In this document: positions 29,535 through 59,724 of the stretch, in pieces | Layout of the letters: the number at the start of each line of letters is the position of its first letter | How positions within the stretch are numbered: the first letter of the stretch is position 1 | NCBI RefSeq assembly: GCF_005576615.1 | Contig: NZ_CP040330.1 | Location: forward strand, 3,038,001-3,102,000 | From: Natrinema versiforme | Lineage (GTDB): Archaea; Halobacteriota; Halobacteria; Halobacteriales; Natrialbaceae | Length of the DNA stretch: 64,000 nt | Direction: 5' to 3' | The notes under the pieces: generated by a model | What the model was told of the DNA's origin: nothing | The model's database searches: none | The model's input: the letters and a program-made list of their open reading frames with translations, nothing else | Position numbers and translations under genes: made by a program

Positions 29535-29693
29535 ATTCTATTCTCTGAAAAGTCAGTAGACTCACTTAGCAACACCGCTCTATGCCCTGCAGAGTTCGTC
29601 CTGCCCTAAGATCACCCCCGAGTAGAATACAGGACTTGACGTCAAGGTATAGCTAAACACTAAGTTAGCGTGTTGGGTACATTCGATAACAAG

Positions 29694-32600
29694 ATGCTTT
29701 CTCTCCCTCCGCTCGTCGATAACGCTAATCGGACGGTCGAGGACGTCTACAAGAAAATCATTCCACAAATCGAAGAAGCACGCATCGCCACCGGCTACTT
29801 CTACCTCTCTGGCTTCGACTTGTACCGCGAAGACCTCGAACAACTCGCTGACCCAGACGAACTTGGTCACGCCCCAATCCGCATCCTGATGGGGCGGCAA
29901 ACAAACCGTAGCACCGCAGATGAGATTGGGGAAGGACAAAGTCTACGCGACGAACTCAGAGATGAGGTCGAAGAGAGTATTGAGGAACTCAACAACGCAC
30001 AGCTAGACCGACTGGATCGGCTGCGAGACTTCATAGCCGAAGACAAGGTTAGCGTCCGTGTGCGAAACCCAGAAAACGGCTATTTCCACGCCAAAGGAGC
30101 ATCATTCCGAGCACCAAACGACAATGACGACTGGGAAACTGACAACGATACAGATACACGTCCGTGTGCGACAATCGTTGGATCCTCAAACTTCACCGCG
30201 AGTGGGCACCGGAACAACATCGAACTGAATCTCACAAGCCAAGACCGGCCTGATGCAGAGGCATTCGAAGACTGGTACGATAACCAGTGGGCGAATGCTG
30301 AGGACTTCAGCGAAGAGATCATCCGGATCATCGAGAACAGTGAGAAGTACCAAGACTGGCAGGACCAACAAGAAGATGAGTCGGATGATGAAGACACGCC
30401 TGATGGTCTAGGGACGTACATCGAACCGTTCGAGTTGTACAAACTCCTTGCGTACGACGAACTAAGCGGGAACGTCAACATCCGCGACAGCCCGCTGTAC
30501 TACTTCCAGACACTCGGATACGAAAGTGCGAAGGAGAAACTCTCCAGGTTCAACGGCTGCATCATCTCCGACTCAGTCGGGCTCGGCAAATCCTTCATCG
30601 GTGGTGAACTCCTCCACGACTACCGCCAACGTGGAGATCACTGTCTCCTCATCGTACCTGCGAACCTCACCGAACAGTGGGAAGACCTCCTCCAAGACGA
30701 CACCGACGAAGACGGGAACCCATACTTCGGGCTCGAAATCGATGGAACACACTTGGACGTGATGAGCATCAGTAAGTTCCAGAACCTCACGTATGATGAG
30801 GTTCAGAACCTCAAAGACGCATTCGACGTCGTCTTGATCGACGAAGCTCATCGCTTCCGGAATCACGGGAAATGGCGGCCGAACCCGGACGACGAAGACG
30901 ACTACAAAGGGACTCGCCGACACGCGAACCTGCGGCAGCTCCGTGGGAAGACGATGATCATGCTGACGGCGACACCGATCAACAATTCTGCGACCGACTT
31001 GGAGAACCTCATCAGCCTATTCACCAGCCCCGAGGAACTGCGGAACAAGGCCTCGCTGGACTTCGACGCCTTCGAGGAATACATTGAGTTGTCAGAGACG
31101 CGGAAGCAGATCGCTGCGGGGAAGGAGGAAGCCACCGAAGAGGAGCAGCGGAAAATCACCGAACAGCTCCAGCGGCATTCGGAGGAGATCTCGAAGATCC
31201 TGAATGAGGTGATGGTGCTCCGGACACGGAAGCACGTCAAAGACCAAATTCAAGATGAGGAGGACTTTGAGATGAGTTTCAAGCCGCCAAAACTCAGCAA
31301 GGAGCAGTACTCGCTCCCGGCGGCATACCAGCCAGTATACGGGATGCTGCCAGACGTTATGGACGCGCTCCACCTTCCGAACATTACGGTGAAGAACCCG
31401 AAAGCTGGGGGGACGCTGAAGGCGCTGTATAAGCTGAATCTACTCAAGCGGTTAGAGTCTTCGACGTATGCGTTTGTGCAGTCCATCGAGACGCTGCACC
31501 GGAGTGAACGGCAACTTCTCGGCCTTCTCGATGGCCTTCCAGAAGACGAGAAGATCAATGTATTGCGTGCTGCTCAAGACGAGGAAGAATCGGAGACGCT
31601 CGATGACTTTGTAGAAGGAGATGATGCCGCAGAGGATCTTGAACAGACGCTAGAAGAGTTCGGGTTCGATGCGACTGCAGTTCGTGCCGACGAAGATTCC
31701 GAGAGTGATAGTCCGGATGAATTGGCGGATGCGACAATTGGAGAGGTGAAGACGTACATCCGGGAGGATCTGACGCTGCTAGCGTACTTCCTGTCGCAGT
31801 TCATCGGCGATATTGCTCAGGACTCTGGCGATGTGAGCGACCAGGCCGTGTCTACACGGCAGTGGCTTCACGATCATAATGCCGGTGTCCTCCCAGACGT
31901 TCCCGAAGAGGAGTTGAATCCGATTCTCTACCCGCGAAGTGACCTGAGTGACGTTGATGAGGCGACGCGGGAGTTCTACGAGGCGGTGTTCTCGTTACGA
32001 GAGTTCCGTGACCCGAAGGTTGAGCGGCTCGCGGATGTCCTGAATGGGTATGATGACGAGAAGGTTCTTGTCTTCACTCAGTACCGTGCTACGGCGGACT
32101 ACGTCCATCGAACACTTCTCAACGATCCAAACTCGCCCCTCACAGAAGCGAATAGTGCCGTCGTCAAAGGCGGTGACGAAAACAAGCAAGACGTTATCCA
32201 GCGGTTCGCACCGGAAGCCTCAGGGTACCAGCAAACGCTGGCTGAATCCGGGGAATCAGAACTGCAGTATGTTATAGCAACTGACACATTATCGGAAGGA
32301 GTCAATCTTCAGGACGTCTCAGTCCAGGTGTCATTCGACCTCCCGTGGAATCCCATGCGTATCGTTCAGCGGGTGGGCCGGATCGACCGGATCGGGAGTA
32401 CCGAGGAGAAGTACGTTCACAACTTCTACCCGGATGGAGACATCGAGGCGGCGATTAAGTTGCTGAAGCGGTTACAGGCGAAGATCAACGACATCGCACT
32501 AATCGTTGGGAAAGAAAACAACATCTTGGATCCGAATGAGGATCAGATTCTGGAGAAGACTGGTGTGGAGACAGAGAAGACGATTGGCGAGTTGCAGGTG

Positions 32601-33506
32601 GACGAGATTGAAGACTCGCTTCAGAAATCAAGAGAGATCGAGGACGTGAACGAGCTTGATGACACGAGTAAGAATCCACTCCTTCGAAATGCAGGGAGTA
32701 ACGAACACGCTGCGTACGAGCGGTTCCTGCTCAAGAAGGAGTTGAACGAGGAATTCGGGCTCTCGGAAGACGACTTCGAATACGCCGCAGACTACTTTGA
32801 AGAATCTCCCGAGGAACGCGAACGCTTGTACACGAATATCACCGACCATGATTCCGGTCCACGTCCGGGTGTGTTCGGGCTTGCGCACCTCTGGTTCGAT
32901 GATGACGACCACGAATCTCCACTGGGCCGTGTTCGGCGGGCCTTCTACTACAAGCCGTTCAATAACGAAGTCAAGGAACGTCCTGTCGGCACTCTCAAAA
33001 TCGACCCAGAGGTGAGCGGAGAACCGATTACAGGGAATGCCGACAACGTGTTATCCAATCGGGAGGCGATTCAAGAGGTGCTTGACGACCGGCTGGAAGC
33101 GATTCGGAGTAGTCAGACTGAGCAGATATTCAAGGATGGGGCAAAGTTCTCGAAGGAGCAGGAAACAATTTTAGACTTTATTGATCGGCACCTACAACCT
33201 CACCACGGTGAGAAACCTGCTCCTGTAGACGAACACGATACGCTTGAAGAATGGGCTGAAGTCCTACTGGAGCGCTTACAGGACGTGAAGTTGGCCAATA
33301 CTGATGAAGATCGTATCCTTCGGGAGACCTTCCGGCATAACGAGCAGTATGATTCGTTCCCAGATTGGCCGCCGGTGGAGTTCTTAGAAGAGCTAGAAGC
33401 GTTCCTGGAAGAGAACGTGGAAGAATCGTCAGAGTACCAAGCGAAACTCGTAGGCGAAAGCGACGTTCAGGCTCGACTGATGTGCTGGGGCGTTGTAGGC
33501 CACTAA
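29694..33506 (+). CDS. PLD-nuclease/SNF2 helicase of a restriction-like system
   Basis: An intact 1,270-residue protein. An N-terminal phospholipase-D-like nuclease domain (about 1-200) shows HxK as H132-A-K134 and GSSNFT at 163-168. A SNF2-type helicase follows with Walker A DSVGLGKS at 293-300 and DEAH at 383-386, then LTATP, TDTLSEGVNLQ near 863 and QRVGRIDRIG near 900. The ATG at 29694 is preferred to a GTG at 29670. Helicases of this size pair with Eco57I-class methylases in DISARM class 1 (DrmD/DrmMI) and in NgoAVII-type restriction (PLD plus helicase), so it is the likely restriction subunit of the split methylase found 14 kb to the right. No DrmA, DrmB or DrmC is present. It abuts, tail to tail with no gap, a homologous methylase C-terminal cassette. 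Confidence 0.88.
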   Translation: MLSLPPLVDNANRTVEDVYKKIIPQIEEARIATGYFYLSGFDLYREDLEQLADPDELGHAPIRILMGRQTNRSTADEIGEGQSLRDELRDEVEESIEELNNAQLDRLDRLRDFIAEDKVSVRVRNPENGYFHAKGASFRAPNDNDDWETDNDTDTRPCATIVGSSNFTASGHRNNIELNLTSQDRPDAEAFEDWYDNQWANAEDFSEEIIRIIENSEKYQDWQDQQEDESDDEDTPDGLGTYIEPFELYKLLAYDELSGNVNIRDSPLYYFQTLGYESAKEKLSRFNGCIISDSVGLGKSFIGGELLHDYRQRGDHCLLIVPANLTEQWEDLLQDDTDEDGNPYFGLEIDGTHLDVMSISKFQNLTYDEVQNLKDAFDVVLIDEAHRFRNHGKWRPNPDDEDDYKGTRRHANLRQLRGKTMIMLTATPINNSATDLENLISLFTSPEELRNKASLDFDAFEEYIELSETRKQIAAGKEEATEEEQRKITEQLQRHSEEISKILNEVMVLRTRKHVKDQIQDEEDFEMSFKPPKLSKEQYSLPAAYQPVYGMLPDVMDALHLPNITVKNPKAGGTLKALYKLNLLKRLESSTYAFVQSIETLHRSERQLLGLLDGLPEDEKINVLRAAQDEEESETLDDFVEGDDAAEDLEQTLEEFGFDATAVRADEDSESDSPDELADATIGEVKTYIREDLTLLAYFLSQFIGDIAQDSGDVSDQAVSTRQWLHDHNAGVLPDVPEEELNPILYPRSDLSDVDEATREFYEAVFSLREFRDPKVERLADVLNGYDDEKVLVFTQYRATADYVHRTLLNDPNSPLTEANSAVVKGGDENKQDVIQRFAPEASGYQQTLAESGESELQYVIATDTLSEGVNLQDVSVQVSFDLPWNPMRIVQRVGRIDRIGSTEEKYVHNFYPDGDIEAAIKLLKRLQAKINDIALIVGKENNILDPNEDQILEKTGVETEKTIGELQVDEIEDSLQKSREIEDVNELDDTSKNPLLRNAGSNEHAAYERFLLKKELNEEFGLSEDDFEYAADYFEESPEERERLYTNITDHDSGPRPGVFGLAHLWFDDDDHESPLGRVRRAFYYKPFNNEVKERPVGTLKIDPEVSGEPITGNADNVLSNREAIQEVLDDRLEAIRSSQTEQIFKDGAKFSKEQETILDFIDRHLQPHHGEKPAPVDEHDTLEEWAEVLLERLQDVKLANTDEDRILRETFRHNEQYDSFPDWPPVEFLEELEAFLEENVEESSEYQAKLVGESDVQARLMCWGVVGH

Positions 33507-35649
33507 TTACGGGAGAGGGCCTTTCTCTGCCAGTTTTTCGTATTTTTTCTTGACCTGGTCAAAGTACTCTTCCGTCATCAGTTGTGGATTCGAAACTCGA
33601 TAGAAATCGTTCAGAATGAACTCCATATCATCGTGTTCGAGGTCGTAGGCGTGGAACGCCGCAGCATTGAGTTCCACGCGAGCACGTTTTCGAGCTTCCT
33701 TACCGGTTATCGGTTCAAGTCCGCCAAGACGCTCGCGCATCTCTTCAAACCGATCGCCATAACAGTTGAGTCTTGCAGCCCGCACAGAAATATACTCGAA
33801 CCAGTCGTCACCTTCGGTTAGCCGAGGCATCTGGGACTCATTAAATTTATACGTAACAACAGTCGTGTCGATCTTGGTCCGCATGATAAAGTCGAATGGG
33901 ATGCTGTTCAGTAGACCAATAGCTACAAACAGCTCCTGGTCAGTGAACGCCCTATCATAGGCTCCATGGAGCGGGAATTCTTCGAGATCCTCCTCAGTAG
34001 GAGCAATCTCGTAAGGACGAACCGTGATTAGTTTGTCATGACAAATGACGTCCTTGGGTATTACGGATGCAATCATCGTCCGCTCATTCGTTGAGTTTGT
34101 TATGTTCCGGAAGACTATCCGGTATTCCGATGAATCAAGCAAGATATCATCCATAGACAAAGGTTCACCTCGATGCTGCTCCAGCAGGTCGTTCACGAAT
34201 TGTTTTTGAGATTTGCTCGTTTGCTCACCACCAAACTCTGTATAGATCGCCTTTTTGAGATTCCCGCTATTGAATGCCCGTTCACGAGCACGGTGTTTGG
34301 CGCTTTTCTCGGGCGTATTGTCTTCTTCCACGCTCCAGTATTCAGCTGGTTCCACCGACCCGGTCATCTCACCATTATAGACGAACTGGTGGACGTTCCG
34401 ACCCCCGTAGACCGGGTACTCGCCTTCCTCAAAGAACCGGTCGGCATCACGTGCACTATGAATCTCTCGATGTGGATGGATGCGCCAGGTACCCTCAACA
34501 TCGTCTTGGATTGACGGATGGTCCAGCAGCTTCGTGAGGACGTCCGCCTCCTGCTGACTCGATACGAACGGGAAGATACGGGCTTCAGGTGAGTACTCTT
34601 CGAGAATCTTCCGGGGAATCTCCGCTGTCTCTTGTTCGAGGTTCTTGAGAATGGATAGGTCGTGCTGCTCAAAGACGCCCTTCAGGCTTTCTGTATACCC
34701 CCCCGTGTTTGAATGTCACCACGGCGAAGTTGTATCGGTCGTCAATCCCGTCGAAAATTCCCTTATTCTCGAATCCGACTAGTGAAGTAATCGTAGATTC
34801 ATTGAGCATCTTCATCCGCATGTCCTTCGAGAATGATCCGTTGAAGATAACTCCGGGAAGTACTTGGGCGACATATCCATCCGCCTTGACGAGGTCGAAG
34901 ACTCGCTCAACGAACAGCCCGGCAAGATTATTCTCGTTCGGGTCTTTCCGGCCGGCCACCTTGGGTGTCTGGAGTTGGTATTTCGGGCCGTCGGTGAAGT
35001 ATCGCATCTGTACTTCGATGTCTTCCTGGTACTCTTCCCACCGCTGAGTTATTTCGTCATCCTCTAATAATTCATTCTGGATTTTATCTTTCTCAGAGGG
35101 ACGCCGTGTTCGGAATTGTTCGTCGTATTTTGGGAAGAAGTCGTCCCGACTCGGTCGTAGCTGATCCCATGGTGGGTTCCCGATTACCACATCGAACCCT
35201 TCTTCGGAGAAGACGTCGGCGAACTCTAACGGCCAGTGGAGCGGTTCCCACTCTCGAATTTCATCCACGGTAATCTCGTTCTGGCCTGCGTCTTGGAACT
35301 CCCTCTGAAGAATCTGGTCGAACTTCTCACGGTGTTCTTCAATCCGTTCTTCCGCTTCCTGACGCCATTTACGCGCCTTTTCGCTGCTCTCAGTCTCTTT
35401 ATGCTTCTGGATTGCTTTTCGGACGTCCTCAAATCGAGCTTTCTGCTCCCAGGAATCAAGGGCGCTATCGCCATTATCGTCCCTCTCGATTTCGATCTTT
35501 GCCTGGCCGATAAGACTGTTTCCTTGACGAATGTTGAAGTCGATATTCGGTAAGGGTTCGACCTCATTTGGCTCGTCTTCGATATCCGCGACCATCGAGA
35601 GCCACAACCGAAGTTTACAGATCTCAGCTTCCAGGCAGGCCCCTCTCAA
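33507..35649 (-). pseudogene. Second C-terminal cassette (C1) of the Eco57I-class methyltransferase, frameshifted
   Basis: It aligns over its whole length with the intact C-terminal half at 44999-47146, from EICKLRLWLSMVADIEDE through VVIGNPPWDQ to the shared end (RVSNPQLMTEEYF). The frame breaks in a run of seven G (34698-34704 on the plus strand as C7). Six G would rejoin the upstream HGG to the downstream YTESLKGVFEQHD. Upstream of 35625 the similarity stops abruptly and the frame runs into unrelated Cys-rich sequence (NPACAQPKCALRGACLEA) ending at a TGA, so the N-terminal half and motif I are missing. It is convergent with, and directly abuts, the helicase gene. It may be a dead copy, or a silent specificity cassette with a slippery tract. 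Confidence 0.8.
35584..35625 (-). repeat. 42-bp direct repeat at start of C1 cassette
   Basis: Identical over 42 bases to 47081-47122 in the same orientation. It encodes EICKLRLWLSMVAD in both cassettes. In the second copy its end coincides exactly with the end of the 27-bp inverted repeat at the switch point. Recombination between the copies would remove 11.5 kb and join cassette C1 to the switch site. Confidence 0.85.
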
Positions 35650-35944
35650 CGCGCACTTCGGCTGTGCGCATGCTGGGTTTCTGAGCGGGTTACAATGATA
35701 GTTCGGGTTTCCGACTAGTTTTCACGAGAAGCGGTGCTTAGCTCTATGTCTGCCGCGTCGACAGGCCATTGGAAACGGTCAGCGACCTCGGAGTGAGTCA
35801 ACTTGAGCGAACTTGCCACAGCAAACGCCTGTGACGTCCCTCAATCGGGTCTCACTCACGCACCCACCGCGCGGTTTCGATGACGGTGGGCATTCGGCGT
35901 GTTCGGAACCGGATATTAAGAGGATACGAGTCTTATTCCCTGTC

Positions 35945-36052
35945 ATGACGCGAAACGTGCGGACGGTCGTCGCGCCGCGGCAACTCGGGGTCTTGTTTGT
36001 GGGTGTCCTCATGATCGTGGTCGGAATCGCCGGTCTCACCGGAGTGATCTAA
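35945..36052 (+). CDS. Micro-membrane protein, paralogue 1
   Basis: A 35-residue protein, MTRNVRTVVAPRQLGVLFVG and on, with a single membrane span. It resembles the 36-residue product at 49404-49514 (MTVKNVTSVVGPRQAVLLLV), position by position, which makes it a real gene. A TATA-like ATATTAAG lies about 30 bases before the ATG, fitting a leaderless transcript. It is followed 2 bp later by the 36055 gene. Function unknown; similar small spans occur in haloarchaeal plasmids and viruses. Confidence 0.6.
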   Translation: MTRNVRTVVAPRQLGVLFVGVLMIVVGIAGLTGVI

Positions 36053-37626: not shown

Positions 37627-38370
37627 TTAGCTGTCTTGTGAGTTCACTTCGCTAAGCGCCGTAGCAACCCGGTCGTCGTCACTCTCACCATCCAAGTACC
37701 ATCGCTTCCGTCCAGGGTCCTTGTGGATGTTTGTGAGTCCTTGCCGGCTGATCGAGAGTGATTTTGCAACGGAACGGTACGATCCTCCATCCTCTAATCG
37801 TTCGATTGCGTCCACGAGTTCGAAGTAACTGTCCTCCCCGTCGTCGGGCTCGACAACGGGCTGTAAGTACCCGTCGTCGTCGCGCCGGAACCCGGCCGGG
37901 ACATTCCCGACCCACTTACCCTGGTCTTTCGCTCGCTTCACGCCGGCTTTCACGCGCCGAATCAGTTGTCGTCGTTCATGCTGATACACCATTCCGACGA
38001 TATCAGCGACGAAGCGTCCGGTTCCGTCGGGTTTGACCTTTCCGACGGCTCCGTCGGTAATGTGAATCGTGACACCGTGTTCTTCGCACGCGTCGAAGAA
38101 TTCCAGTAGCGTGGCACCGCGGCGACTAATCCGGGAGATCTCCCACACGATCACATGGTCGAACTCGTCGTTTCGGATACCGTCGAGTAGGTCATTGAAT
38201 TGTTCGCGCTCATCGTTCGACCCGGACTCGATGTCTACGTACTGTTCGATACGGTCGCAGGGTAGATTCTGCTTATCGATGTACTGGTTGATTGAGTCCC
38301 GCTGGTGCTGGTCGTTTTGCCGCTCGGTGGACGGCCGAATGTACGTCCCGACCCGCTCCGATTTCTCCAT
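37627..38370 (-). CDS. Serine recombinase (resolvase/invertase family)
   Basis: A 247-residue small serine recombinase. The catalytic Ser is S14 in YIRPSTERQ, with R12. The conserved EISRISRRG at about 78-86 and the E-helix (RRQLIRRVKAGVKRAKDQGKWVG) follow. A Hin-type helix-turn-helix is at the C-terminus (SYRSVAKSLSISRQGLTNIHKD). All catalytic residues appear intact. It could resolve replicon dimers or invert DNA; it is a second candidate, besides the tyrosine recombinase at 44281, for operating the methylase switch 9 kb away. Confidence 0.88.
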   Translation of the reverse strand: MEKSERVGTYIRPSTERQNDQHQRDSINQYIDKQNLPCDRIEQYVDIESGSNDEREQFNDLLDGIRNDEFDHVIVWEISRISRRGATLLEFFDACEEHGVTIHITDGAVGKVKPDGTGRFVADIVGMVYQHERRQLIRRVKAGVKRAKDQGKWVGNVPAGFRRDDDGYLQPVVEPDDGEDSYFELVDAIERLEDGGSYRSVAKSLSISRQGLTNIHKDPGRKRWYLDGESDDDRVATALSEVNSQDS

Positions 38371-44280: not shown

Positions 44281-44949
44281 ATGGCTCCGGCACGACAAAA
44301 GTCACTCAGTGAGCGAGAGTTTGAATTGCTGTTGGAAGGAGCAGGACGAATTGAGAACCCCACTCAGCGACTCGAATCGAGGGCAGCAATTCTAATCGGA
44401 GGACGTCTCGGGCTGAGGCCAGGTGAGACAACCCATCTGAGTTCATCATGGGTTGATCAAGAGCGACAGATGATTCGCATCCCCGAACACCACACATGTA
44501 CTAAAGGCCAAGATGGGAACCTTTGCGGCTATTGCCGTCAGGCAATCGAACAACGCGTACGACATAACCCCGATAGTGAATTTGGAGACTTTGCCGATTT
44601 GTATTGGCTTCCGAAAACAGAAGCAGCGGCTCGACAGATACCATTCCAATTTTCCTACCGGGTCCGGGTAGCAATCGATCTCCTAATCACGGAGCACGGC
44701 GGTTGGCCATACTCTTTCTCAACCTTACAACGGAGATTGAATGCTGCTCTTGATTTGGCTCCACAGCTTTCCAGAAACGCAACGTCTCTACATGGCCTTC
44801 GAGCGACGGCCGCCTCCTACCACGCTAGCAGAGGATTGGACTTAGCAGCACTCCGAGCAATGTTCGGTTGGGAAGACATCGATACAGCTCGCCAATACCT
44901 CAACGTAGATGGGGCGATGACTCGTCGTGCGTTGAACGATATCCATTAA
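44281..44949 (+). CDS. Compact tyrosine recombinase beside the switch
   Basis: A 222-residue protein that is almost entirely catalytic domain. Visible are R46 (LGLRPGETTHL), K112 (LPKTEAAARQIPF), H171 and R174 (HGLRATAASYH), W197 (FGWEDID) and the nucleophile Y206 (ARQYLNVDG). A Cys group (C73, C82, C85) lies between the first Arg and the Lys. The N-terminal core-binding domain of usual integrases is missing. It ends 50 bp before the stop of the methylase C-terminal half on the other strand. This placement and the intact active site make it the best candidate for the invertase acting on the 27-bp repeats. Confidence 0.85.
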   Translation: MAPARQKSLSEREFELLLEGAGRIENPTQRLESRAAILIGGRLGLRPGETTHLSSSWVDQERQMIRIPEHHTCTKGQDGNLCGYCRQAIEQRVRHNPDSEFGDFADLYWLPKTEAAARQIPFQFSYRVRVAIDLLITEHGGWPYSFSTLQRRLNAALDLAPQLSRNATSLHGLRATAASYHASRGLDLAALRAMFGWEDIDTARQYLNVDGAMTRRALNDIH

Positions 44950-44998: not shown

Positions 44999-47146
44999 CT
45001 ATGGCTTCGGGCCTTCTTCCCCAAGCATCCCGTATTTCTCAAGTACTGTGGCGAAGTAGTCCTCAGTCATAACTCGGGGGTTTGAGACCCTGTGGAAATC
45101 TTTGAGGACAAACTGAGCTTCCTTATGTTCTAAACCGTAAGCATGGAATGCTGCAGCGTCAATCTCGGCTTGGATTTCGCGCCTTGCTTCTTCAGTCGTT
45201 GCGGGATCAATTCCTCCTAGACGGTCGCGCATTTCGTCGAATTCATCACCGTAGCAACTCAGTTTAGCCGCCCGTTCTGAAATATAGTGGAACCAGTCAT
45301 CGTCCTCAGAAAGATCAGGCATCTGTGATTCTTTGAACTTATACATGACAATACCGGTGTCTACCTTAGTTCTAAGCAGGTAATCGAGCGGTATCGAGTT
45401 GAGAAGCCCGAGCTTAGCGAACAATTCCTCGTCAGAGAACATCCGGGTATAGAAGTTATGAAGTGGCCTTTCAGAGAGTCCTTCCTCGTAGGGCTGGATC
45501 AGGTAACTAGGGATAGTCAGCAACGTGTTGTGACAGACGATTCCTTTCGGCAGTACCGAGGCGATGAGTGTACGCTCATTAGTGGAATTCGAAATTCGTC
45601 GAATAGCGATTCGGTACTCAGTGGAATCTAGAAGTACGTCATTCTCGGTGAGTGGTTCCCCACGGTGTTGCTCCAGTAGCTCATTGACGAACCCTTTCTG
45701 GGAGCCCGTACCATCAAACGCTTCATAAATGGCCGCCTTAAGATCACGAACAGTTTTCTCCCGCATGCGTTGTTTGGCACTTCGCTCTGGGTCGTTTTGT
45801 TCTTCGACACTCCAGAATTCGGGTTCCTGCACGTCTGTTATGAAGTCCGGAGTATAGGAATATTGGTAAATATTCTTACCACCGTAGACAGGGTAGTCGG
45901 CTTCTGACTTATCCACGAAACGATCTGCATCACTTGTGCGACGGAGTCCCTGATACGGCTCCATGTATCCGGTTGGTGCATCTTTTGGAGCGATAGGTGG
46001 GTTATCGATAATCGATTCAAGGACACTGAGTTTTTGCTCCGATTCAATATACGGGAAGATCCCCGCTTCTGGGGAATACGATTCGAGTACCTTCCGTGGG
46101 ATCCGGACTGCTTTTTCATTGAAGTTCTCGAAGATGGAGAGATTCCCTGATTCATATTTCCCAGAGACATATTCTGTCGAACCACTGTTCTGGAACACTA
46201 CTACGCCGAACTTGTAGCGATCATCAACCTGCTTGAAAATCCCGTGGTTCTCGAAGATTGTCAGTACTTCGAGAGTAGTGTTATTCAACAGGTGGGTTCG
46301 TAGATCTTTACCTGATGCCCCGTTGAAAACCGCGCCAGGAAGAATTTGAGCGACGCGAGAAGAGTCACCCGCAAGCTGGAATACCCGCTCGAAAAAGAGA
46401 GATGAAAGGTCATTCGTGCTGGGATTGACCCGGCCATCAATCACAGGACGCTGGAGGTCGTATGCGGGCGTGTTCTTGAAGTACTCTGCACGGAGTTCCA
46501 TTTCATTCTGGTATTCCTGCCACCCTTCAGCGATATCATCATCTGCTAGGAGCTCCTCTTGGACTTGATCTTTGTCATCTGGTAGTCGTGTCCGAAATGC
46601 CTCATCGTGTTTGGAGAAATAGTCGTCACGAAGCGGCTTGATACGGTCCCATGGAGGGTTTCCGATGACAACATCGAATCCGCCGTCTTCGTACACGGGG
46701 GCGAATTCCAATACCCAGTGAAATGGGCTGAATTCCTTTAATTCCTCTATATCAACATCTTCCAGCCCCGCAGCGTGGAATTGATCTAACACTTTCTCAT
46801 TCAATTCCTGGCTATGAGAATCAACTAGCGATTCAGCAAGCTGGCGCGCATTTTGCGCCTCAGCAGTACTGGTGGCCTTTTGATGGCGTTTGATTGCGTT
46901 GATTACATCCTCATATAACTCCTGTACGCCAGTCCCGACGCCGCCTCCCCAATTGGTGAGGGACGCATCCCCGTCGTCAGTTACTTCTACTAAATTGGTG
47001 AACCCGACAAGGGAATTCCCTTGTCGGATGTTGAAATCGATATTCGGCAGCGGCTCAACCTCCTGTGGTTCGTCTTCAAGATCCGCGACCATCGAGAGCC
47101 ACAACCGAAGTTTACAGATCTCGACCGCCCCCTGGTCAATGTCCAC
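44999..47146 (-). CDS. C-terminal half (C2) of invertible Eco57I-class adenine methyltransferase
   Basis: An intact 715-residue frame, opening with GTG as V/M-DIDQGAVEICKLRLWLSMVADLEDE. It holds the catalytic GNPPWDR motif (NPPW at 163-166) of N6-adenine methyltransferases and a long C-terminal target-recognition region. Motif I is missing here and lies in the N-terminal half on the opposite strand at 47312. The first nine codons are the 27-bp repeat also found in that half, in the same frame. No promoter or ribosome site is evident at 47146, so the half is probably silent in this orientation. After inversion of 47150-48769 it would be fused in frame to give 1,202 residues. Confidence 0.88.
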   Translation of the reverse strand: MDIDQGAVEICKLRLWLSMVADLEDEPQEVEPLPNIDFNIRQGNSLVGFTNLVEVTDDGDASLTNWGGGVGTGVQELYEDVINAIKRHQKATSTAEAQNARQLAESLVDSHSQELNEKVLDQFHAAGLEDVDIEELKEFSPFHWVLEFAPVYEDGGFDVVIGNPPWDRIKPLRDDYFSKHDEAFRTRLPDDKDQVQEELLADDDIAEGWQEYQNEMELRAEYFKNTPAYDLQRPVIDGRVNPSTNDLSSLFFERVFQLAGDSSRVAQILPGAVFNGASGKDLRTHLLNNTTLEVLTIFENHGIFKQVDDRYKFGVVVFQNSGSTEYVSGKYESGNLSIFENFNEKAVRIPRKVLESYSPEAGIFPYIESEQKLSVLESIIDNPPIAPKDAPTGYMEPYQGLRRTSDADRFVDKSEADYPVYGGKNIYQYSYTPDFITDVQEPEFWSVEEQNDPERSAKQRMREKTVRDLKAAIYEAFDGTGSQKGFVNELLEQHRGEPLTENDVLLDSTEYRIAIRRISNSTNERTLIASVLPKGIVCHNTLLTIPSYLIQPYEEGLSERPLHNFYTRMFSDEELFAKLGLLNSIPLDYLLRTKVDTGIVMYKFKESQMPDLSEDDDWFHYISERAAKLSCYGDEFDEMRDRLGGIDPATTEEARREIQAEIDAAAFHAYGLEHKEAQFVLKDFHRVSNPRVMTEDYFATVLEKYGMLGEEGPKP
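47081..47122 (-). repeat. 42-bp direct repeat at start of C2 cassette
   Basis: Identical to 35584-35625 and adjoining the 27-bp inverted repeat at base 47123 without a gap. See the C1 entry. Confidence 0.85.
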
Positions 47147-47149
47147 CCC
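47123..47149 (-). repeat. 27-bp inverted repeat, C2 side (switch site)
   Basis: Perfect reverse complement of 48770-48796; the flanking bases differ on both sides. It encodes GVDIDQGAV in frame with C2. The core GGACATTGACC is an imperfect dyad, as expected of a recombinase site. Confidence 0.9.
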
Positions 47150-47311
47150 CAGTAGCCGTGACTTCCCTCACAGAAATACCAAGAGACTACTGGCAGAGTG
47201 GACTTACTTCAGGACATTACGAATATATACTCTGCACAGTGGTAATCAATTCAGAGTGAATAGTCGATAGAGTGACCACCACTTATGGCAAAAGAGGGGA
47301 TTGCATAGAGT

Positions 47312-48856
47312 ATGACTCTCCAGCAGATCACTGCGAATGATATCGCAGGCTGGGACTCTCTCCAAGATATCGCTAACTCGTTCGAGAAACGCGGGTTAAA
47401 GCCGCGTCCGAACCTTGGAGATGACAGCCAACTCGTTCTTCAGCTCGGTGACGACGAATTTGTCGTACTCGTCAACGCAGGCCCGGGTGAATCAGCTACG
47501 GACTTCAAGCCCGACAATCGTTCCCGGCATACGAACCTCGTCGCTACGAACGACTTCGAGGAGTTTACCTTCCTAACACGGATTCGCAGTTGGGAAGGCC
47601 AGCAGCACGGCCGGATCAAGCACCAGAAAATCTCGTTCAGCAAAGACCAGTTCACGCGGGACAGCGGGGAGAAGAATACCGTGCTGAAGAAGCTCAATTC
47701 GATTGAGTACGGTTCTTCTGCCGCGATTTACGACACGCTGTACGACACACAGCAGGTGGTAAAAGAGTTCTACGAAGAGTTCGAGGATCTCCGCACCGAT
47801 CTCGTTCAAGAGGTGTCCGGTGTTCCGGATGACCGTGGTGACGCTAAGCAACGCTACGTGCAGGTCATCCTTGACCGGATGATCTTCCTGTACTTCATCC
47901 AGGAGAAGCGTCTGTTGGATCGCAATCCGAACTACCTGCACGAACAGCCTAGTGACGTCGTAGATGATGGTGATGACCGGTACGAGAACTTCTACCGGCC
48001 ACTGTTCTTCGAATACCTCGCAGAAGACAAGCAGAACCCCAACTTCGGCAGTCTCCCCTACCTGAATGGGGGGTTGTTCGCCAAGAACCCTGTTGAGGAA
48101 GAATTCCCAGACGCGAAACTCGGTGAATCCGCTGAAGAGACGAACCAGCTCTTCGATGACATCTTGGACTTCCTATCTGGATGGAACTGGAACGTAGACG
48201 AGCGTCTTGACATCGTTGACCCGAAGAACCTCTCACCCGCCATTCTCGGCCACATCTTTGAGCAGACTGTCAACCAGAAGGAGATGGGCGCGTACTACAC
48301 GCCTGAAGAGATCACCGGCTTCATGTCCCGCCGGACGATCCACCCGTATCTGCTTGACCAACTCAACGACGCTGTCGATGCCGAATACGACGAAATTGAC
48401 GATGTGTTCGGTTTCCCTAGTGTAGAAGCCAGCAGTGCGGGAGAAGCGGTCGCGGATGGCGGAACGATGACACGGCAAATGCCCGCTGAGAACGTGAAGA
48501 CGAAGCATATCGAAGCGCTGTACCATGATATCCTGAAAGAGGCGCACATCCTCGATCCTGCGGTCGGTAGTGGTGCGTTCTTACTTGCTGCACAGGATGT
48601 GCTCGTGGACATTTACATGCAGTGCATCGAGTACTTCCAGCAGCTCGAACAGGAAGGGAAGGGTTGGGAGTTGGACTCTCGTACCCGCGACGAACTGGAG
48701 GAGATTAATGAAGGGCAGGGTGGGGCGTCACTGTACGCGAAGCGCACGGTGATTCTGAATAATCTGTACGGGGTGGACATTGACCAGGGGGCGGTCAGCC
48801 CCCTCTCATTGCGGCTCCCGTTCGGGAGCATCCGCGGGTTGACGCGGACCGGCTAA
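47312..48856 (+). CDS. N-terminal half of invertible Eco57I-class adenine methyltransferase
   Basis: A 514-residue frame. Residues 1-486 are true methyltransferase sequence: an N-terminal domain (LVLQLGDDEFVVLVNAGPGE), a helical region with RYVQVILDRMIFLYFIQEK, LGHIFEQTVNQKEMGAYYTPEEI, and SAM motif I DPAVGSG at 415-421. At GVDIDQGAV the frame enters the 27-bp repeat and then 19 unrelated residues (SPLSLRLPFG and on) to a stop, so the catalytic NPPW motif is absent. A TATA-like ATATATAC at about 47223 and a GAGGGG ribosome site sit inside the invertible segment, so gene and promoter would flip together. In the flipped state the start would map to 48607 and the gene would read through 44999. 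Confidence 0.88.
   Translation: MTLQQITANDIAGWDSLQDIANSFEKRGLKPRPNLGDDSQLVLQLGDDEFVVLVNAGPGESATDFKPDNRSRHTNLVATNDFEEFTFLTRIRSWEGQQHGRIKHQKISFSKDQFTRDSGEKNTVLKKLNSIEYGSSAAIYDTLYDTQQVVKEFYEEFEDLRTDLVQEVSGVPDDRGDAKQRYVQVILDRMIFLYFIQEKRLLDRNPNYLHEQPSDVVDDGDDRYENFYRPLFFEYLAEDKQNPNFGSLPYLNGGLFAKNPVEEEFPDAKLGESAEETNQLFDDILDFLSGWNWNVDERLDIVDPKNLSPAILGHIFEQTVNQKEMGAYYTPEEITGFMSRRTIHPYLLDQLNDAVDAEYDEIDDVFGFPSVEASSAGEAVADGGTMTRQMPAENVKTKHIEALYHDILKEAHILDPAVGSGAFLLAAQDVLVDIYMQCIEYFQQLEQEGKGWELDSRTRDELEEINEGQGGASLYAKRTVILNNLYGVDIDQGAVSPLSLRLPFGSIRGLTRTG
48770..48796 (+). repeat. 27-bp inverted repeat, N side (switch site)
   Basis: Exact inverted copy of 47123-47149, in frame within the N-terminal half (GVDIDQGAV). 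The 1,620 bp between the copies contain the promoter and first 486 codons of the methyltransferase. Confidence 0.9.
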
Positions 48857-49403: not shown

Positions 49404-49514
49404 TCAGAACCCGCCTACGTACCCGATGACACCGATCACGATCATTCCAATACCCACGAGGAGAAGAACGGCTTGCCGTGGTCCGACGACGCTCGTGACG
49501 TTCTTCACGGTCAT
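49404..49514 (-). CDS. Micro-membrane protein, paralogue 2
   Basis: A 36-residue protein, MTVKNVTSVVGPRQAVLLLV and on, single span. It matches the product at 35945-36052 along its length (NV-(T/R)-VV-PRQ, then a hydrophobic run with G-MIVIG). Conservation between two loci argues that both are genes. Function unknown. Confidence 0.6.
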   Translation of the reverse strand: MTVKNVTSVVGPRQAVLLLVGIGMIVIGVIGYVGGF

Positions 49515-49856
49515 GTCACGAGTTTAGACCCGAATCCTCTTAATAATCACTTACGAACACGTTGAGTGCCCACCGTCGTCGAAACCGCGTGGTGGGCGCG
49601 TGACGAGACCGACCCCGAAACGAGGGACAGCACGGGTAAGGTGCAACGGTCCCGTCACGCGGCACTCCGGTCACCCGGAGCACTCCGAGATTACTGACCG
49701 TTCCCCAAAGGCCTGTCGACACGACCAACCCCGCGTATCTTCGCACCCCCGAACAACAGGGTTCGGGAGTCCAAACCCGGCAGTACGCATCACCGAACTA
49801 CAGTAATGCCAGTGGAAATACCTATGAACGCCCGGGCAATGTTTCTCTGTAGTAGT
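49515..49856. other. Intergenic region
   Basis: About 340 bp. A short inverted segment (CACTCCGGTCACCCGGAGCACTCCG, written in parts: CTCCGG at about 49666 and CCGGAG at about 49675) may form a hairpin. No gene is seen. Confidence 0.35.
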
Positions 49857-54734: not shown

Positions 54735-55973
54735 ATGACCGGCGAGTACGACGAAGAAACTGTCGAGAAATACCTCACCGCAGCACGCAGCACCGACAAC
54801 GACCGCGTGGACGTGCAAGTTGAGGCGCTCCTCAACCGACTCGTTGAGCGCGTGAAGGCTGTCGACAAGAAGTGGAAGTGGTTAGACGAAGTCGGTAACG
54901 TCAAAGAGGCTCTCGCCCGGTTCGCAGAGGAAACCGGGGATCCTGGGGCCGTTATTGAACACGTAGACGAATACGGGAATGACTACGCGAATGACACCGG
55001 GCAGAAAGTCAGCACCGGCACGATCACCGGTGATATGCTGGATAAGGTCCGTGAATTGGACCGTGAAACGCGTGCAGAGTCCGGTGAAGAGTTCGAAATA
55101 GACGGTGATGGGATCGGGTTCGACCGGTACCTGGAAGAGCACCTCGTCCGAGTCGTGCAACTACGGAACACCGACCACGTGTCCAACGTAACGACGCGGT
55201 TCGAATTCGACGATGGGACGGAAATTGAGTGCGGTGAAGATCACTTGTACTGGGAGCCGTTCTTCCGAGCGGTTGCCCCGCATACGCAGATCGATTCGGG
55301 TGTGATGCGGGAATTCGCGTCACAACAAGCGACGACGCGAATCCCCGACGACGCGGGGGATGTGACCGACACCAACTCGCATGCGTACAGCCTGTACTGC
55401 AAGTTGTCGCTCGGCCCGGAAGAACGGCCGTGGTCAAAGAACACTGACCTGTGGGACAAGGCAATCAAGGATCTGATCAAAGAATACGGAACAGAAACCG
55501 TATCGACAGGTCCGCGCACGGAAGCCTGGGAGAATCTGCAGGGCAAAATCGGGGCAGCGCGCGCTACGGCGAATCTCGACGATGCAGTCGAGCACGCTGA
55601 AGTGTACGTAGACGAAGATCTGGACGAAGTGTGGGTGCCGACGAGTATGGCCGCGACGGTCGTTGAGGATGTTGAAATTGACCGGCAGGACCTGCAGATG
55701 GAACTCGCAAAGCGGGGTGTGGATAGCGATCACCTCAGCGGTGACAAGCTCGGATTCAAGGTCACGCGGAACGGGTCGTTCCAGCGGTTCTGGCGGTTCG
55801 ACGCAACGCACGAAGCGACTCCGGAGCCGCGTGAGGTTGTCGACACGATCAGCACCGGTGGCGCGTCGAACATCGGCGGGTCGTCCGGTACGGCAGCGGC
55901 TGACGGCGGGACGTACGGCCGCGACCCGACAGGCGACGAAGACAGTGACGAGAACCGGGGTGACGGCGAATGA
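54735..55973 (+). CDS. Replication-operon protein 1, unknown function
   Basis: A 412-residue acidic protein. It has a helical N-terminus (NRLVERVKAVDKKWKWLDEVGNVKEAL), a central part with beta strands (TTRFEFDDGTEIECGEDHLYWEPFFRAVAP) and a low-complexity end rich in Gly, Asp and Ser. No family recognised. It overlaps the helicase start by ATGA, so it is the first gene of a coupled four-gene operon and probably a replication accessory factor. Confidence 0.7.
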   Translation: MTGEYDEETVEKYLTAARSTDNDRVDVQVEALLNRLVERVKAVDKKWKWLDEVGNVKEALARFAEETGDPGAVIEHVDEYGNDYANDTGQKVSTGTITGDMLDKVRELDRETRAESGEEFEIDGDGIGFDRYLEEHLVRVVQLRNTDHVSNVTTRFEFDDGTEIECGEDHLYWEPFFRAVAPHTQIDSGVMREFASQQATTRIPDDAGDVTDTNSHAYSLYCKLSLGPEERPWSKNTDLWDKAIKDLIKEYGTETVSTGPRTEAWENLQGKIGAARATANLDDAVEHAEVYVDEDLDEVWVPTSMAATVVEDVEIDRQDLQMELAKRGVDSDHLSGDKLGFKVTRNGSFQRFWRFDATHEATPEPREVVDTISTGGASNIGGSSGTAAADGGTYGRDPTGDEDSDENRGDGE

Positions 55974-57973
55974 CCGGGCGCGAGAAGAACGGCGACGGCG
56001 ACGCGATCCCGGGGTGGCTCCGCGAGAACCTCCCGAAGAAACTGGACGGTATGGAACTCGTCGGGACGGACGTCGCCGGAGTAACGGACTCCGCGCGACT
56101 GTACGGCCCGCCGGGAGCCGGGAAAACCACGCAAATAACGGTGCGGACGGCCGTCGTCGCGGACGCGCTCGATCTGCACCCGAGTGATATAACGGTGTGT
56201 ACGTTCCGGACGTCGCAGGCTGACAAGGTCCGTGAACGCGGTGTTGACTGGGATGCGTTCCCGGAAGGTGACGCGGACACGTACGAGTACTGGGCGACGA
56301 CGCACGCTGTCGCAGCACGTGCGACCGGGTTCCACGACCAATTCGACGGTGAGTCCGACGACCTGGAAGGAATGGCGAATGAGAAGCAGAAACGCCGATT
56401 TTGCGACGAGTACGACGTCACGTTCCAGGTCCCGAAGCCGTGGTACTCGACGGCGTGGGACGTGTTCCATAACCTGTACACGTACGCGAAGCAGAACATG
56501 CTGGACGTCGGGTCGTCACGGTTCCTTGACGGTGACCGGTGGGACCGCCGGCCACTTGAACAGGACATGCGTGCGTGGCGGAAGCTCGACGCGTTCCACG
56601 ATGAATGGGAGAGTGGAACGTCGTTCCACGCGGTCGCTGAGGCGTGGGAGACGTGGAAACACCGACACAACGTGTACGATTTCTTCGAACAGCTGGAGGC
56701 AGCGCTCGCGGCTGACGCACCGCTCCCACTGATGGAACTCCTCGTGATCGACGAGTACCACGACGCGTACCCGCTCATGGCGACGCTGTCGGAGAAGTGG
56801 ATTCGGAACGCGGAAATCGCACTCGTCGCCGGTGACCCCGACCAGTGCATCAACTCGTTCAACGGCGCGGACCCGCGAATCTTCGAGCGACTGCACGAGC
56901 GTGTCGACAAGGACATGCCCGTGATTCACCTCCCGAAGAGTCACCGGTGTCCCACGGAGCACTACCAGGCGGCGGCGCGGATGCTCCGCGAAGAGCGTAA
57001 CGTGCCGGCGCTGGACACGGACGGGCGCGGGCTGATCAACCGGTTCCGCCCGACGCCGATTGACTACGACGACCGTGCCGGTGAATGGGATTTGCCGAAC
57101 CCTGACGAACCCGGCACGCCGGTGTGGTTGTGGTGTGAACACGGGCCGGGTGTCATGTTCCTCGCACGGACGCAACGGCAGTTAGACGGCGTCGGCGCGG
57201 CGCTCGACCGGCACGGGATCGTGTACGAATCGCAGACCGACGTGGCCGGTGACTGGGAGAAACGTCTCCGTCTCATGCGTGCACTCGACCGGGTCGCTGA
57301 CGTGCGGCCGGCGACGCAAGCGAGCGTCTTGGACGGTGACCAGTACGACGACTCCGGCCGGCAGCACGAGCGTATCGGGCGGAAACGGTTCACGCCGGAC
57401 GAGGCGTTCGCGCTGGTTGAGCACTCGGACGCGCGGGCGCTCGACGGCCAGGGTGAACTCCTCTCGCTAATCGGGACCGCACGCCTGCAGAACAACAGCG
57501 TACACGTCGATGAGTTCGCACAGCATGTGAAGGACTCGTGGTGGGGGCGGTACGCAAACGGCCGCGAGTCGATTGACGAGCTAACGTACCTCAATGACGA
57601 CGAGAAGACGGCGATGAAAATGGCGTGGACGCGGTACGAGGACCGCAAATTCACGATTGACGTCGCTGACGATACGCGACTCCTCACGATTCATGCCGCG
57701 AAGGGCGCGGAGCAAGACGACGTGGTGCTGTACGACGGGACCACGAAGCGAATCCAGGATCAGTGCGACGAGCACGACGACGAGCGGGAGAACGAAGCCC
57801 GGACCTGGTACGTCTCACTCACCCGCGCGTCGGAACGGCTGCACATCGTTCGTGACGGGCACGAATGGACGCGACAACACCTGCCGGACGACCTGGAACC
57901 CGCGGCGGCGGCCGCGGCGAAACGCGCGGCAGACCGTGACGCTGACGGCAGCACGGGAGGTGAGCAAGCATGA
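55970..57973 (+). CDS. UvrD/Rep-type superfamily 1 DNA helicase
   Basis: A 667-residue helicase with SF1A motifs in order: Walker A GPPGAGKTT (46-54), motif Ia-like TVCTFRTSQADKVRERG, motif II VIDEYHDAYPL with DEYH, motif III AGDPDQCINSFNGAD, motif IV KSHRCP, motif V TIHAAKGAEQDDVVLYDG and motif VI YVSLTRASERLHIV. It unwinds DNA 3' to 5' using ATP. ATGA overlaps couple it to the genes on both sides. It is expected to work with the downstream primase-polymerase in replicating the element. Confidence 0.92.
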   Translation: MTGREKNGDGDAIPGWLRENLPKKLDGMELVGTDVAGVTDSARLYGPPGAGKTTQITVRTAVVADALDLHPSDITVCTFRTSQADKVRERGVDWDAFPEGDADTYEYWATTHAVAARATGFHDQFDGESDDLEGMANEKQKRRFCDEYDVTFQVPKPWYSTAWDVFHNLYTYAKQNMLDVGSSRFLDGDRWDRRPLEQDMRAWRKLDAFHDEWESGTSFHAVAEAWETWKHRHNVYDFFEQLEAALAADAPLPLMELLVIDEYHDAYPLMATLSEKWIRNAEIALVAGDPDQCINSFNGADPRIFERLHERVDKDMPVIHLPKSHRCPTEHYQAAARMLREERNVPALDTDGRGLINRFRPTPIDYDDRAGEWDLPNPDEPGTPVWLWCEHGPGVMFLARTQRQLDGVGAALDRHGIVYESQTDVAGDWEKRLRLMRALDRVADVRPATQASVLDGDQYDDSGRQHERIGRKRFTPDEAFALVEHSDARALDGQGELLSLIGTARLQNNSVHVDEFAQHVKDSWWGRYANGRESIDELTYLNDDEKTAMKMAWTRYEDRKFTIDVADDTRLLTIHAAKGAEQDDVVLYDGTTKRIQDQCDEHDDERENEARTWYVSLTRASERLHIVRDGHEWTRQHLPDDLEPAAAAAAKRAADRDADGSTGGEQA

Positions 57974-59724
57974 CCACGAACACTGACGACGAGACGCCGG
58001 ACTGGGCGGCAGAAATGAGCGACCGTGAACCGGTCGAAGCGGAGGTACTCGACGACGTCACTGGCGAGTGGCGCGACGAAACGTTACTCAACCGTGCCCG
58101 TCACGTGTTCCGCGACGTGTACCTGGAAGCGCGTGACCGCGCGGACGCTGACCGGGCGTACGTCCTGCATGACGTGCTTGACGCGGTGTGCAGGGACCGC
58201 GGGTTCAACGGGCTCACTCGGGAACTCCGCGGGGATGCGGAGTGGCTCGTGTGGACACCGGGAAGCCGCGACGCCCCGCTGTACGCGTACACGCCGGACT
58301 TGGCCGGTGACACGACCGCGGAGCGGGAACGGTTCGCGGAGCTTCTCGACACGGTCGGTGTCGGCACGGAACGGTTCATCGACGTGCACGACGGGCAGAA
58401 AGGGTCGTTCGACACAGGGAACGCCCGCGAGTACGACGACCCGTCGATTACCGGGAACTACGGTGTGAAAGGCGGGCAAGGTGGCAGCGACACCGACCGG
58501 TGGTTAGTGGACATTGACGTTGACGACTACGACGACGCTACGCAGAACGAGTTCGTTGACGGGCTCCGCGGTAACACGCTGTCCGTTGCGTCCGCTCACA
58601 CGGAGACGGAACGACCCGGGCATCTGTACGTTGTTGTGACTGGTGACCCGCGAGACGTGGTGCGTGACGTGCTCGGACGCGACGTGCGGAACCCGGTCGC
58701 GTCGTTCGGTGAAATCCGGATTGACGACCAGTACTGTGTCGGGCCCGGATCGGAAATCGTATGCGGGTGCAAGAAATGCACCAGCGAGAACGCTGATTCG
58801 AACGGATACGGGCGATACGAGTTCGCGTCGGCAGTCCCCCCGGTCGTGTGGTCGAAGGACGACTTCCGCGCGTTCCTCCGCTCGGACGTGAAGATCCGCG
58901 CGGCAGCTGACCAGACCACCGACGACAACGACGACGGTACCGGCGGTACGGTCGATACGAGTGACACGGACGAGATTGTGGACTTCGCAGAGAGCGTGGA
59001 CGACACGGTCTCTGACGCGCTGAACTACGGAGTCCCGAACGACCGGTCGGCAGCGGACTCGTTCATAGCGTGGGCGCTCGGTCCGTGGTTGAACTTCGAC
59101 ACGGACGCGGTCGAGTCCGAACTCGATGACCATGGAACAAGCAAGTGGCAGGACCGCGGAGACAGTTACAAGAGGTCCGTGCTGACTGGCGTCGATGCCC
59201 GGGAAGACAAGATGAACACTGACGGCTATGACGGTGACGTGCCGCACTGGGCGGTCGTCAAGTACGCGGTCGAGACAGGGATCGTTGACGAGGACGACCT
59301 GGTTGAGAAGAATAGCGACGACAGGGCCGGGTCGTACGACGCGCTCCCATCGAAACTGCACTACGAAGCGACGCTGGAAGCGATTGAAGAACTCGGCGTT
59401 AACCACGGGTGGGAGTGGGACGAAGAGCGTGCCGACACGGACCGCGAGTATTACGCCGTCGTGGAAGAGTACGCACCGGACGGTACGGACGTGTTCGTTG
59501 ACGACGCGGCGTTCCTAGTCGCGTGCATCCTTGCCCGGGAGGATGACGCGGTGTCGGGCGATGCTGACGTGCCGAACCGCGCGCTCACTCCGATTGTCGG
59601 TCCGGTGGACGAGGCCAGCGACGACACTGTGGAACTCGGGCGAGAAGTGTTCCACGAGTTAACCGAGTCTGAGGCGCGTGAACGCTTCTACAGTGCCGGG
59701 AATTCCGGAGGTGAGACCGCATGA
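57970..59724 (+). CDS. Archaeo-eukaryotic primase-polymerase (prim-pol) type protein
   Basis: A 584-residue protein. Residues about 150-320 resemble the prim-pol fold: a DxD metal site in WLVDIDVDDYDD (D181, D183), H218 in ERPGHLYVVVTGDP, and GEIRIDDQYCVGPGS (about 247-261), which matches the nucleotide-binding strand seen as VGPxS in this family. A Cys group (C265, C267, C270) follows. The C-terminal half is acidic and may be a separate helical domain (FIAWALGPWLNFDTDAVESELDDHG). It likely starts DNA synthesis for the element. ATGA overlaps on both sides. Confidence 0.78.
   Translation: MTTNTDDETPDWAAEMSDREPVEAEVLDDVTGEWRDETLLNRARHVFRDVYLEARDRADADRAYVLHDVLDAVCRDRGFNGLTRELRGDAEWLVWTPGSRDAPLYAYTPDLAGDTTAERERFAELLDTVGVGTERFIDVHDGQKGSFDTGNAREYDDPSITGNYGVKGGQGGSDTDRWLVDIDVDDYDDATQNEFVDGLRGNTLSVASAHTETERPGHLYVVVTGDPRDVVRDVLGRDVRNPVASFGEIRIDDQYCVGPGSEIVCGCKKCTSENADSNGYGRYEFASAVPPVVWSKDDFRAFLRSDVKIRAAADQTTDDNDDGTGGTVDTSDTDEIVDFAESVDDTVSDALNYGVPNDRSAADSFIAWALGPWLNFDTDAVESELDDHGTSKWQDRGDSYKRSVLTGVDAREDKMNTDGYDGDVPHWAVVKYAVETGIVDEDDLVEKNSDDRAGSYDALPSKLHYEATLEAIEELGVNHGWEWDEERADTDREYYAVVEEYAPDGTDVFVDDAAFLVACILAREDDAVSGDADVPNRALTPIVGPVDEASDDTVELGREVFHELTESEARERFYSAGNSGGETA

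What the first reader, a model, noticed from the sequence alone, without database searches (positions are those of the whole stretch)
44281..44949. Compact tyrosine recombinase as dedicated invertase
The protein has the full R-K-HxxR-W-Y set but no core-binding domain and an added Cys group. It lies 50 bp from the methylase C half and is apparently not linked to an att site of the main element. This fits a specialised invertase like those that flip tail-fibre genes in haloarchaeal viruses. A serine recombinase at 37627 is the alternative.
Basis: inference. Interest (0 to 1): 0.75.

Follow-up and report, generated by a model that had tools for sequence, protein, structure and literature searches.

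The report
Recombinase flips archaeal methylase gene
A small DNA-flipping enzyme in salt-loving archaea sits beside a DNA-methylase gene cut in two, and in related species it appears to flip the front half of that gene between two alternative back halves, which would let cells switch how they mark and defend their DNA.

Summary
ORF 44281-44949 is a 222-aa tyrosine recombinase consisting only of a catalytic domain, ending 49 nt from the methylase C half. In relatives the intact locus is recombinase, C half 1, [repeat, N half with its upstream region, repeat], C half 2, then a PLD-SNF2 helicase. The N half flips between two C halves, so the switch probably changes specificity rather than only on/off. 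All 17 non-window loci with a recombinase at least 70% identical (391-genome survey) have the C half 38-68 nt away. N halves occur in both orientations (9 and 5). One plasmid record holds both orientations of an otherwise 99.95-99.985% identical 46-kb stretch. Thirty-three loci with the same methylase but no recombinase have neither repeat nor second C half. The window copy is damaged: its second C half is frameshifted and displaced to 33507-35628, leaving at most an on/off switch, now off. Inversion would restore a 1,202-aa ORF. More distant recombinases (under 56%) never adjoin this methylase. The Cys group is family-wide. The serine recombinase is not conserved with the system. Causation by the recombinase is inferred, not shown.

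The parts
44281..44949 (+). Compact tyrosine recombinase (222 aa), proposed dedicated invertase
   Evidence: C half within 150 bp in 17 of 17 homologous loci at 70% identity or more
44999..47149 (-). Methylase C half 1 (proximal to the recombinase; ORF from GTG 47146; carries the NPPW motif)
   Evidence: Pfam Eco57I E 4e-23; N half and C half are parts of one ORF in relatives
47123..47149 (.). Left arm of the 27-nt perfect inverted repeat, encodes GVDIDQGAV on the - strand
47150..48769 (.). Predicted invertible segment: upstream region and N half
   Evidence: in silico inversion gives a 1,202-aa ORF 48607-44999 on the - strand
47312..48856 (+). Methylase N half (homologous to codon 495 at 48796; then 19 unrelated codons and a stop); carries DPAVGSGAF
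48770..48796 (.). Right arm of the 27-nt perfect inverted repeat
33507..35628 (-). Second C half, displaced and broken (two ORFs in different frames, first codons lost); its first 42 nt equal those of C half 1
29670..33506 (+). PLD-SNF2 helicase, conserved partner gene convergent to C half 2
   Evidence: PLDc_2, SNF2-rel_dom, Helicase_C; found in 18 of 22 recombinase-bearing loci and 29 of 33 recombinase-free loci given

Best explanation
The gene encodes a dedicated tyrosine recombinase that inverts a segment of about 1.5-1.6 kb carrying the start and front half of an Eco57I-class adenine methylase. The repeats lie inside the coding sequence, so each orientation joins the N half in frame to one of two C halves on opposite strands, giving two alternative methylases. 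By inference the divergent middle of the C half holds the target-recognition part, so the switch changes target specificity. The N half has the DPAVGSGAF motif and the C half the NPPW motif, so an unjoined half should be inactive. A PLD-SNF2 helicase next door is the likely restriction arm. In the window the second C half has been displaced and frameshifted, so the switch would only give on (after inversion) or off (the present state). Shown: anatomy, in-frame junctions, both orientations in nature, strict co-occurrence. Inferred: that this recombinase does the cutting, that specificity changes, and that the system is antiviral.
For: Two-C-half architecture with inverted repeats of 25-80 nt in 14 non-window loci where all parts are on one contig (12, 2). 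N half joined to the recombinase-proximal C half in 9 and to the distal one in 5. Halorussus vallis plasmid NZ_CP100003.1: bases 1-46183 repeat as 121286-167465 at 99.95-99.985% identity, with the N-half segment inverted between the copies (locus level). Recombinase-free controls: 0 of 33 have a repeat of 18 nt or more or a second opposite C half. The label changes at least twice on the N-half tree. C half 38-68 nt from the recombinase in 17 of 17 loci at 70% or more. In silico inversion restores a 1,202-aa ORF. Several contigs from other genomes end within a few bases of the inner repeat boundary.
Against: No inversion was measured. Exceptions: recombinases of 71% (L155) and 75% (L157) sit away from this methylase. 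L064, L065, L066 and L160 (64-67%) have the C half beside the recombinase, but with a different N half, no repeat and no second C half. Loci of one clade are near copies, so the counts overstate independence. The two crossover regions (clade A at codon 487, clade B at codon 436) differ, and no palindromic recombinase site is evident. The duplicated plasmid record may be an assembly product, though either reading needs both orientations. No methylation data.
Confidence: 0.82

Rival explanations
1. The inversion is driven by general homologous recombination between the duplicated C-half starts; the recombinase is a linked integrase of the mobile element.
For: Several loci have imperfect homology well beyond the perfect arms, e.g. 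about 2-kb inverted alignments at 93% around the segment. Many relatives under 56% identity lie in virus or plasmid contexts without repeats.
Against: The window arm is only 27 nt. 0 of 33 recombinase-free loci have the arrangement. Inner boundaries are constant within each clade. C-half-linked sequence differences outside the arm stay with their C half in either orientation, which points to a local crossover.
Confidence: 0.1
2. The serine recombinase at 37627-38370 is the invertase.
For: It has a resolvase domain (Pfam E 3.2e-30), lies in the same window, and matches an invertase-type model weakly.
Against: Similar genes occur in only 1 of 22 recombinase-bearing loci (26% identity) and 3 of 33 recombinase-free loci given, while the tyrosine recombinase always accompanies the intact arrangement.
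Confidence: 0.02
3. The window copy is a dead relic: the recombinase or its sites no longer work, and the N half is stuck in the off orientation.
For: The second C half is frameshifted and displaced; only the present orientation is seen in this assembly.
Against: Recombinase, both 27-nt arms, N half, C half 1 and helicase are all intact, and inversion would still give a full ORF.
Confidence: 0.3

Closest known systems
Int1 of haloarchaeal viruses phiCh1, phiH1, ChaoS9 (tail-fibre switching)
   Same: Same recombinase family, 38-40% identical over 79-91%; switches C-terminal parts of a coding gene; phiH1 and phiCh1 records annotate an invertible segment; passages of PMC6471424 read.
   Different: Int1 lies inside its invertible segment, here the gene lies outside; target is a cellular defence methylase; separate clade.
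PsrA and hsdS inversions of Streptococcus pneumoniae (type I RM)
   Same: A locus-encoded tyrosine recombinase inverts between short inverted repeats inside specificity genes (passages of PMC4948785).
   Different: Separate specificity subunit of a type I system in a bacterium; here one polypeptide carries methylase and recognition, and the constant N half with its start is the part that flips.
BREX PglX of Lactobacillus rhamnosus
   Same: A full-length PglX (1198 aa) and a partial PglX (743 aa) with a site-specific integrase at the locus; phase variation cited (passages of PMC7513527).
   Different: The window methylase does not reach the NCBIfam BREX PglX cut-offs (41 of 500 and 22.6 of 900 bits for the N half); the conserved partner is a PLD-SNF2 helicase; in L. 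rhamnosus the integrase lies between the two PglX forms.
Type IIG (Eco57I-class) enzymes and DISARM methylase DrmMI
   Same: Full-length relative L046 scores best against REase_MTase_IIG (3.2e-67) and DrmMI (4.9e-35) models.
   Different: No nuclease domain was found by sequence in the N half (no convincing PDB match); partner gene is a PLD-SNF2 helicase.

Membership tests
Tyrosine recombinase / phage integrase family | Catalytic R, K, H, R, H/W, Y set and fold | tested here: met
Tyrosine recombinase / phage integrase family | N-terminal core-binding domain (usual, not universal) | tested here: not met
   Whole chain maps on catalytic domains only; first helix starts at residue 11
Invertible (phase-variable) methylase locus | Inverted repeats flanking a segment whose inversion joins alternative coding parts | tested here: met
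Invertible (phase-variable) methylase locus | Both orientations exist in nature | tested here: met
   In relatives: 9 and 5 of 14 loci and both in one plasmid record; in the window genome only one seen
Invertible (phase-variable) methylase locus | Inversion depends on the linked recombinase | not testable with these tools
   Co-occurrence only
BREX | PglX methylase together with PglZ and BrxC | tested here: not met
   PglX cut-offs not reached; no PglZ or BrxC hit among the 20 window proteins given to PADLOC; the remaining window ORFs were not scanned
DISARM class 1 | DrmD helicase, DrmMI methylase, DrmA, DrmB, DrmC | tested here: inconclusive
   Helicase and methylase resemble DrmD and DrmMI weakly (DrmD cut-off 610 not reached at 139.5 bits); the helicase also matches a DrmA model at 2e-17, far below its HKD+Snf2 match; no DrmB or DrmC among the listed rows for 20 proteins given
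Type IIG restriction-methylase | Nuclease and methylase in one chain | tested here: inconclusive
   Methylase part met; no nuclease domain recognised in the N half; N half not modelled

The most novel reading that the evidence does not exclude
A compact archaeal recombinase plus a spare methylase C half form a portable add-on that has turned a fixed one-chain methylase and PLD-helicase defence system into a two-state, specificity-switching one at least twice, with crossover at two different places in the gene; it would be the first such switch reported in archaea.
Probability: 0.5. Interest if true: 0.75.

Novelty: new variant of a known kind. Interest (0 to 1): 0.62.

Why it matters
If true, archaeal populations hold two epigenetic and defence states by flipping the constant front half of a single-chain methylase. 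The loci here give a ready system (plasmid-borne in several species, both states sequenced) to test whether specificity switching protects against viruses adapted to one methylation pattern. They also link tail-fibre switching in haloviruses and defence switching in their hosts through one recombinase family.

Tried and rejected
Serine recombinase as invertase: rejected on conservation. Cys group as invertase mark: rejected, invariant in all 48 members aligned. BREX label: rejected on score cut-offs. N half against PDB: only a weak BrxX methylase-motif match at E 0.35 and weak Rop matches, no nuclease. C half against PDB: no match. N-half profile in viral contigs: no relative. A shared YATTGA eight bases in from the inner repeat boundary in both clades is a lead for the crossover core only; the exact repeats of the viral Int1 segments did not show it. 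The cause of the displacement of the second C half in the window was not settled. Literature: no report of an inversion-switched archaeal methylase was seen in search listings 10, 26, 27, 33, 67, 68, 72, 73, 90, 91 or in the passages read of PMC10609329 and PMC8371274; only that open library was searched.

Rows dropped: 16 of the 63 recombinase references that one search printed were left out of alignment A1, near copies in the main; one search counts all 60 non-viral loci. The regions fetched were the stronger matches, chosen by hand; its weaker and partial matches were not fetched. One search covered 391 genomes drawn from a larger class.

Full report
The gene. ORF 44281-44949 (+) encodes 222 aa with a Phage_integrase match (E 1.1e-10). 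In 48 relatives R46, K112, R174, W197, Y206 and three cysteines (73, 82, 85) are invariant and H171 is at least 90% conserved. The model (mean pLDDT 86.6, pTM 0.83) aligns along its length to catalytic domains only, e.g. XerA 100-282 at Z 17.2, HP1 integrase 168-328 at Z 15.8. So the protein is a bare catalytic domain. The cysteines are common to the family, including relatives with no inversion context.

The locus. The 27-nt arms 47123-47149 and 48770-48796 are perfect, unique in the window and absent from 100 shuffles. Both encode GVDIDQGAV in frame. Inverting the segment in silico yields one 1,202-aa ORF that ends at the C half's own stop, 49 nt from the recombinase stop. In the present orientation the N half runs past the repeat into 19 unrelated codons and stops, so no full methylase is encoded: the state is off. 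N half and C half carry DPAVGSGAF and NPPWD respectively (translations; their roles as methylase motifs I and IV are recalled).

Survey. P0001 was searched in 391 genomes of the class; 115 have a match. I fetched 60 regions around the stronger matches and tested each for the methylase halves and repeats. The C half lies within 150 bp of the recombinase in 17 of 17 loci at 70% identity or more, 3 of 4 at 64-69%, 1 of 6 at 56-63% and 0 of 33 below. Of eight new loci at 70% or more, six have the C half; L155 and L157 do not. L064, L065, L066 and L160 (64-67%) have the C half beside the recombinase but a different N half, no repeat and no second C half.

Architecture. Where all parts lie on one contig the order is recombinase, C half 1 (convergent), arm, N half, arm, C half 2 (opposite strand). 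This was seen in 12 loci (L046, L048-L054, L056, L058-L060) and 2 (L146, L156, whose N halves carry frame breaks). L057 has a broken N half. The N half is joined to the recombinase-proximal C half in 9 of the 14 and to the distal one in 5. The two C halves of a locus are about 51-58% identical in the seven loci compared, highest in the first 60 columns. L046 and L048 share a 99% identical distal C half but their proximal ones are only 55% identical, so C halves are exchanged as cassettes.

Inversion in nature. L058 and L059 lie on one contig and are 100% identical over 12,678 and 5,740 bases but differ in the orientation of the N-half segment. In the matching record NZ_CP100003.1, bases 1-46183 recur as 121286-167465 at 99.95-99.985% identity, which looks like an untrimmed circular assembly; if so, both orientations were present in one culture. 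If it is a true duplication, the inversion is newer than nearly every other change. Several contigs of other genomes end within a few bases of the inner repeat boundary (L150, L151, L061, L140), as expected if both orientations were in the reads, though repeats alone might cause this.

Control. The N half was searched in the same 391 genomes. Regions were fetched for 33 loci of the same methylase family without the recombinase. None of the 33 has an inverted repeat of 18 nt or more spanning over 300 nt, and none has a second C half on the opposite strand; three (L134-L136) have tandem methylases. Two of the 33 are cut by contig ends (L109, L132). On an N-half tree the recombinase-bearing loci need 3 changes of label, at least 2 forced by well-supported branches.

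Crossover site. In the window's clade the repeat begins at codon 487 of the N half (GGGGTRGAYATTGA...), in the other clade at codon 436 (ATGCAATGYATTGAG...), and each inner boundary is constant within its clade, give or take one base. In the second clade the differences outside the arm stay linked to their C half in either orientation, which places the crossover inside the arm. Both share YATTGA eight bases in; this is a lead, not a finding.

Partner gene. The PLD-SNF2 helicase (PLDc_2, SNF2-rel_dom, Helicase_C) accompanies the methylase in 18 of 22 recombinase-bearing loci given (three of the four misses are cut loci whose other ends do have it) and in 29 of 33 recombinase-free loci. It best matches a PADLOC HKD+Snf2 model (2.5e-74). 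So methylase plus helicase is the core system, and the recombinase with a spare C half looks like an add-on. That the system restricts foreign DNA is inferred from the domains.

The window copy. The second C half lies at 33507-35628 on the - strand beside the helicase, 9 kb from the recombinase, in two frames. It has lost the repeat but keeps the next 42 nt, identical to C half 1, so the original repeat was longer. The block between and beyond carries a serine recombinase and short similar stretches at 35848-36024 and 49432-49610 in inverted orientation; how the displacement arose is unsettled.

Kin. The nearest described relatives are Int1 of phiH1, ChaoS9 and phiCh1 (38-40% identity), which switch tail-fibre genes (passages of PMC6471424) from inside the invertible segment. 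The inverton recombinases and the viral Int1 fall in different, strongly supported parts of the tree. Other relatives of 63-71% sit in further methylase-bearing or defence-like loci: L063 between HmaB-like methylases, L068 beside a DrmMI-like methylase, L155 beside HNH and DUF499 genes.

Verdict. A dedicated invertase of a methylase switch is the best reading (0.82). The kind is known in bacteria; the combination here (archaea, one-chain methylase, flipping of the constant half between two C halves, bare catalytic-domain recombinase outside the segment) is a new variant as far as the ten searches of the open library show.

Noticed in passing
window 54735-60446: Four overlapping same-strand ORFs; the second (55970-57973) matches UvrD-type GajB models (5.5e-29), the others matched nothing: a possible further defence operon.
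   Followed up: partly
window 35848-36024 and 49432-49610: Two 74% similar stretches in inverted orientation near the two ends of the displaced block, and CCCCTCTCA-like sequence at both junctions; perhaps element ends.
   Followed up: partly
L177/L178 (NZ_CP100003.1): Complete-labelled plasmid record whose first 46 kb repeat at its end, probably an untrimmed circle of about 121 kb.
   Followed up: yes
L063:6840-13273: A 66% identical recombinase sits between two direct HmaB-like methylase genes (71% identical), with a third partial copy downstream.
   Followed up: partly
L157:9692-10871: A 75% identical recombinase flanked by a perfect 93-nt inverted repeat with no methylase near.
   Followed up: no
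L079, L080, L081: Recombinases of about 40% identity lie inside inverted repeats of 34-88 nt; possible further invertible segments.
   Followed up: no
L057:3946-6491: N half destroyed by a 1,115-nt palindromic duplication at the invertible segment.
   Followed up: no
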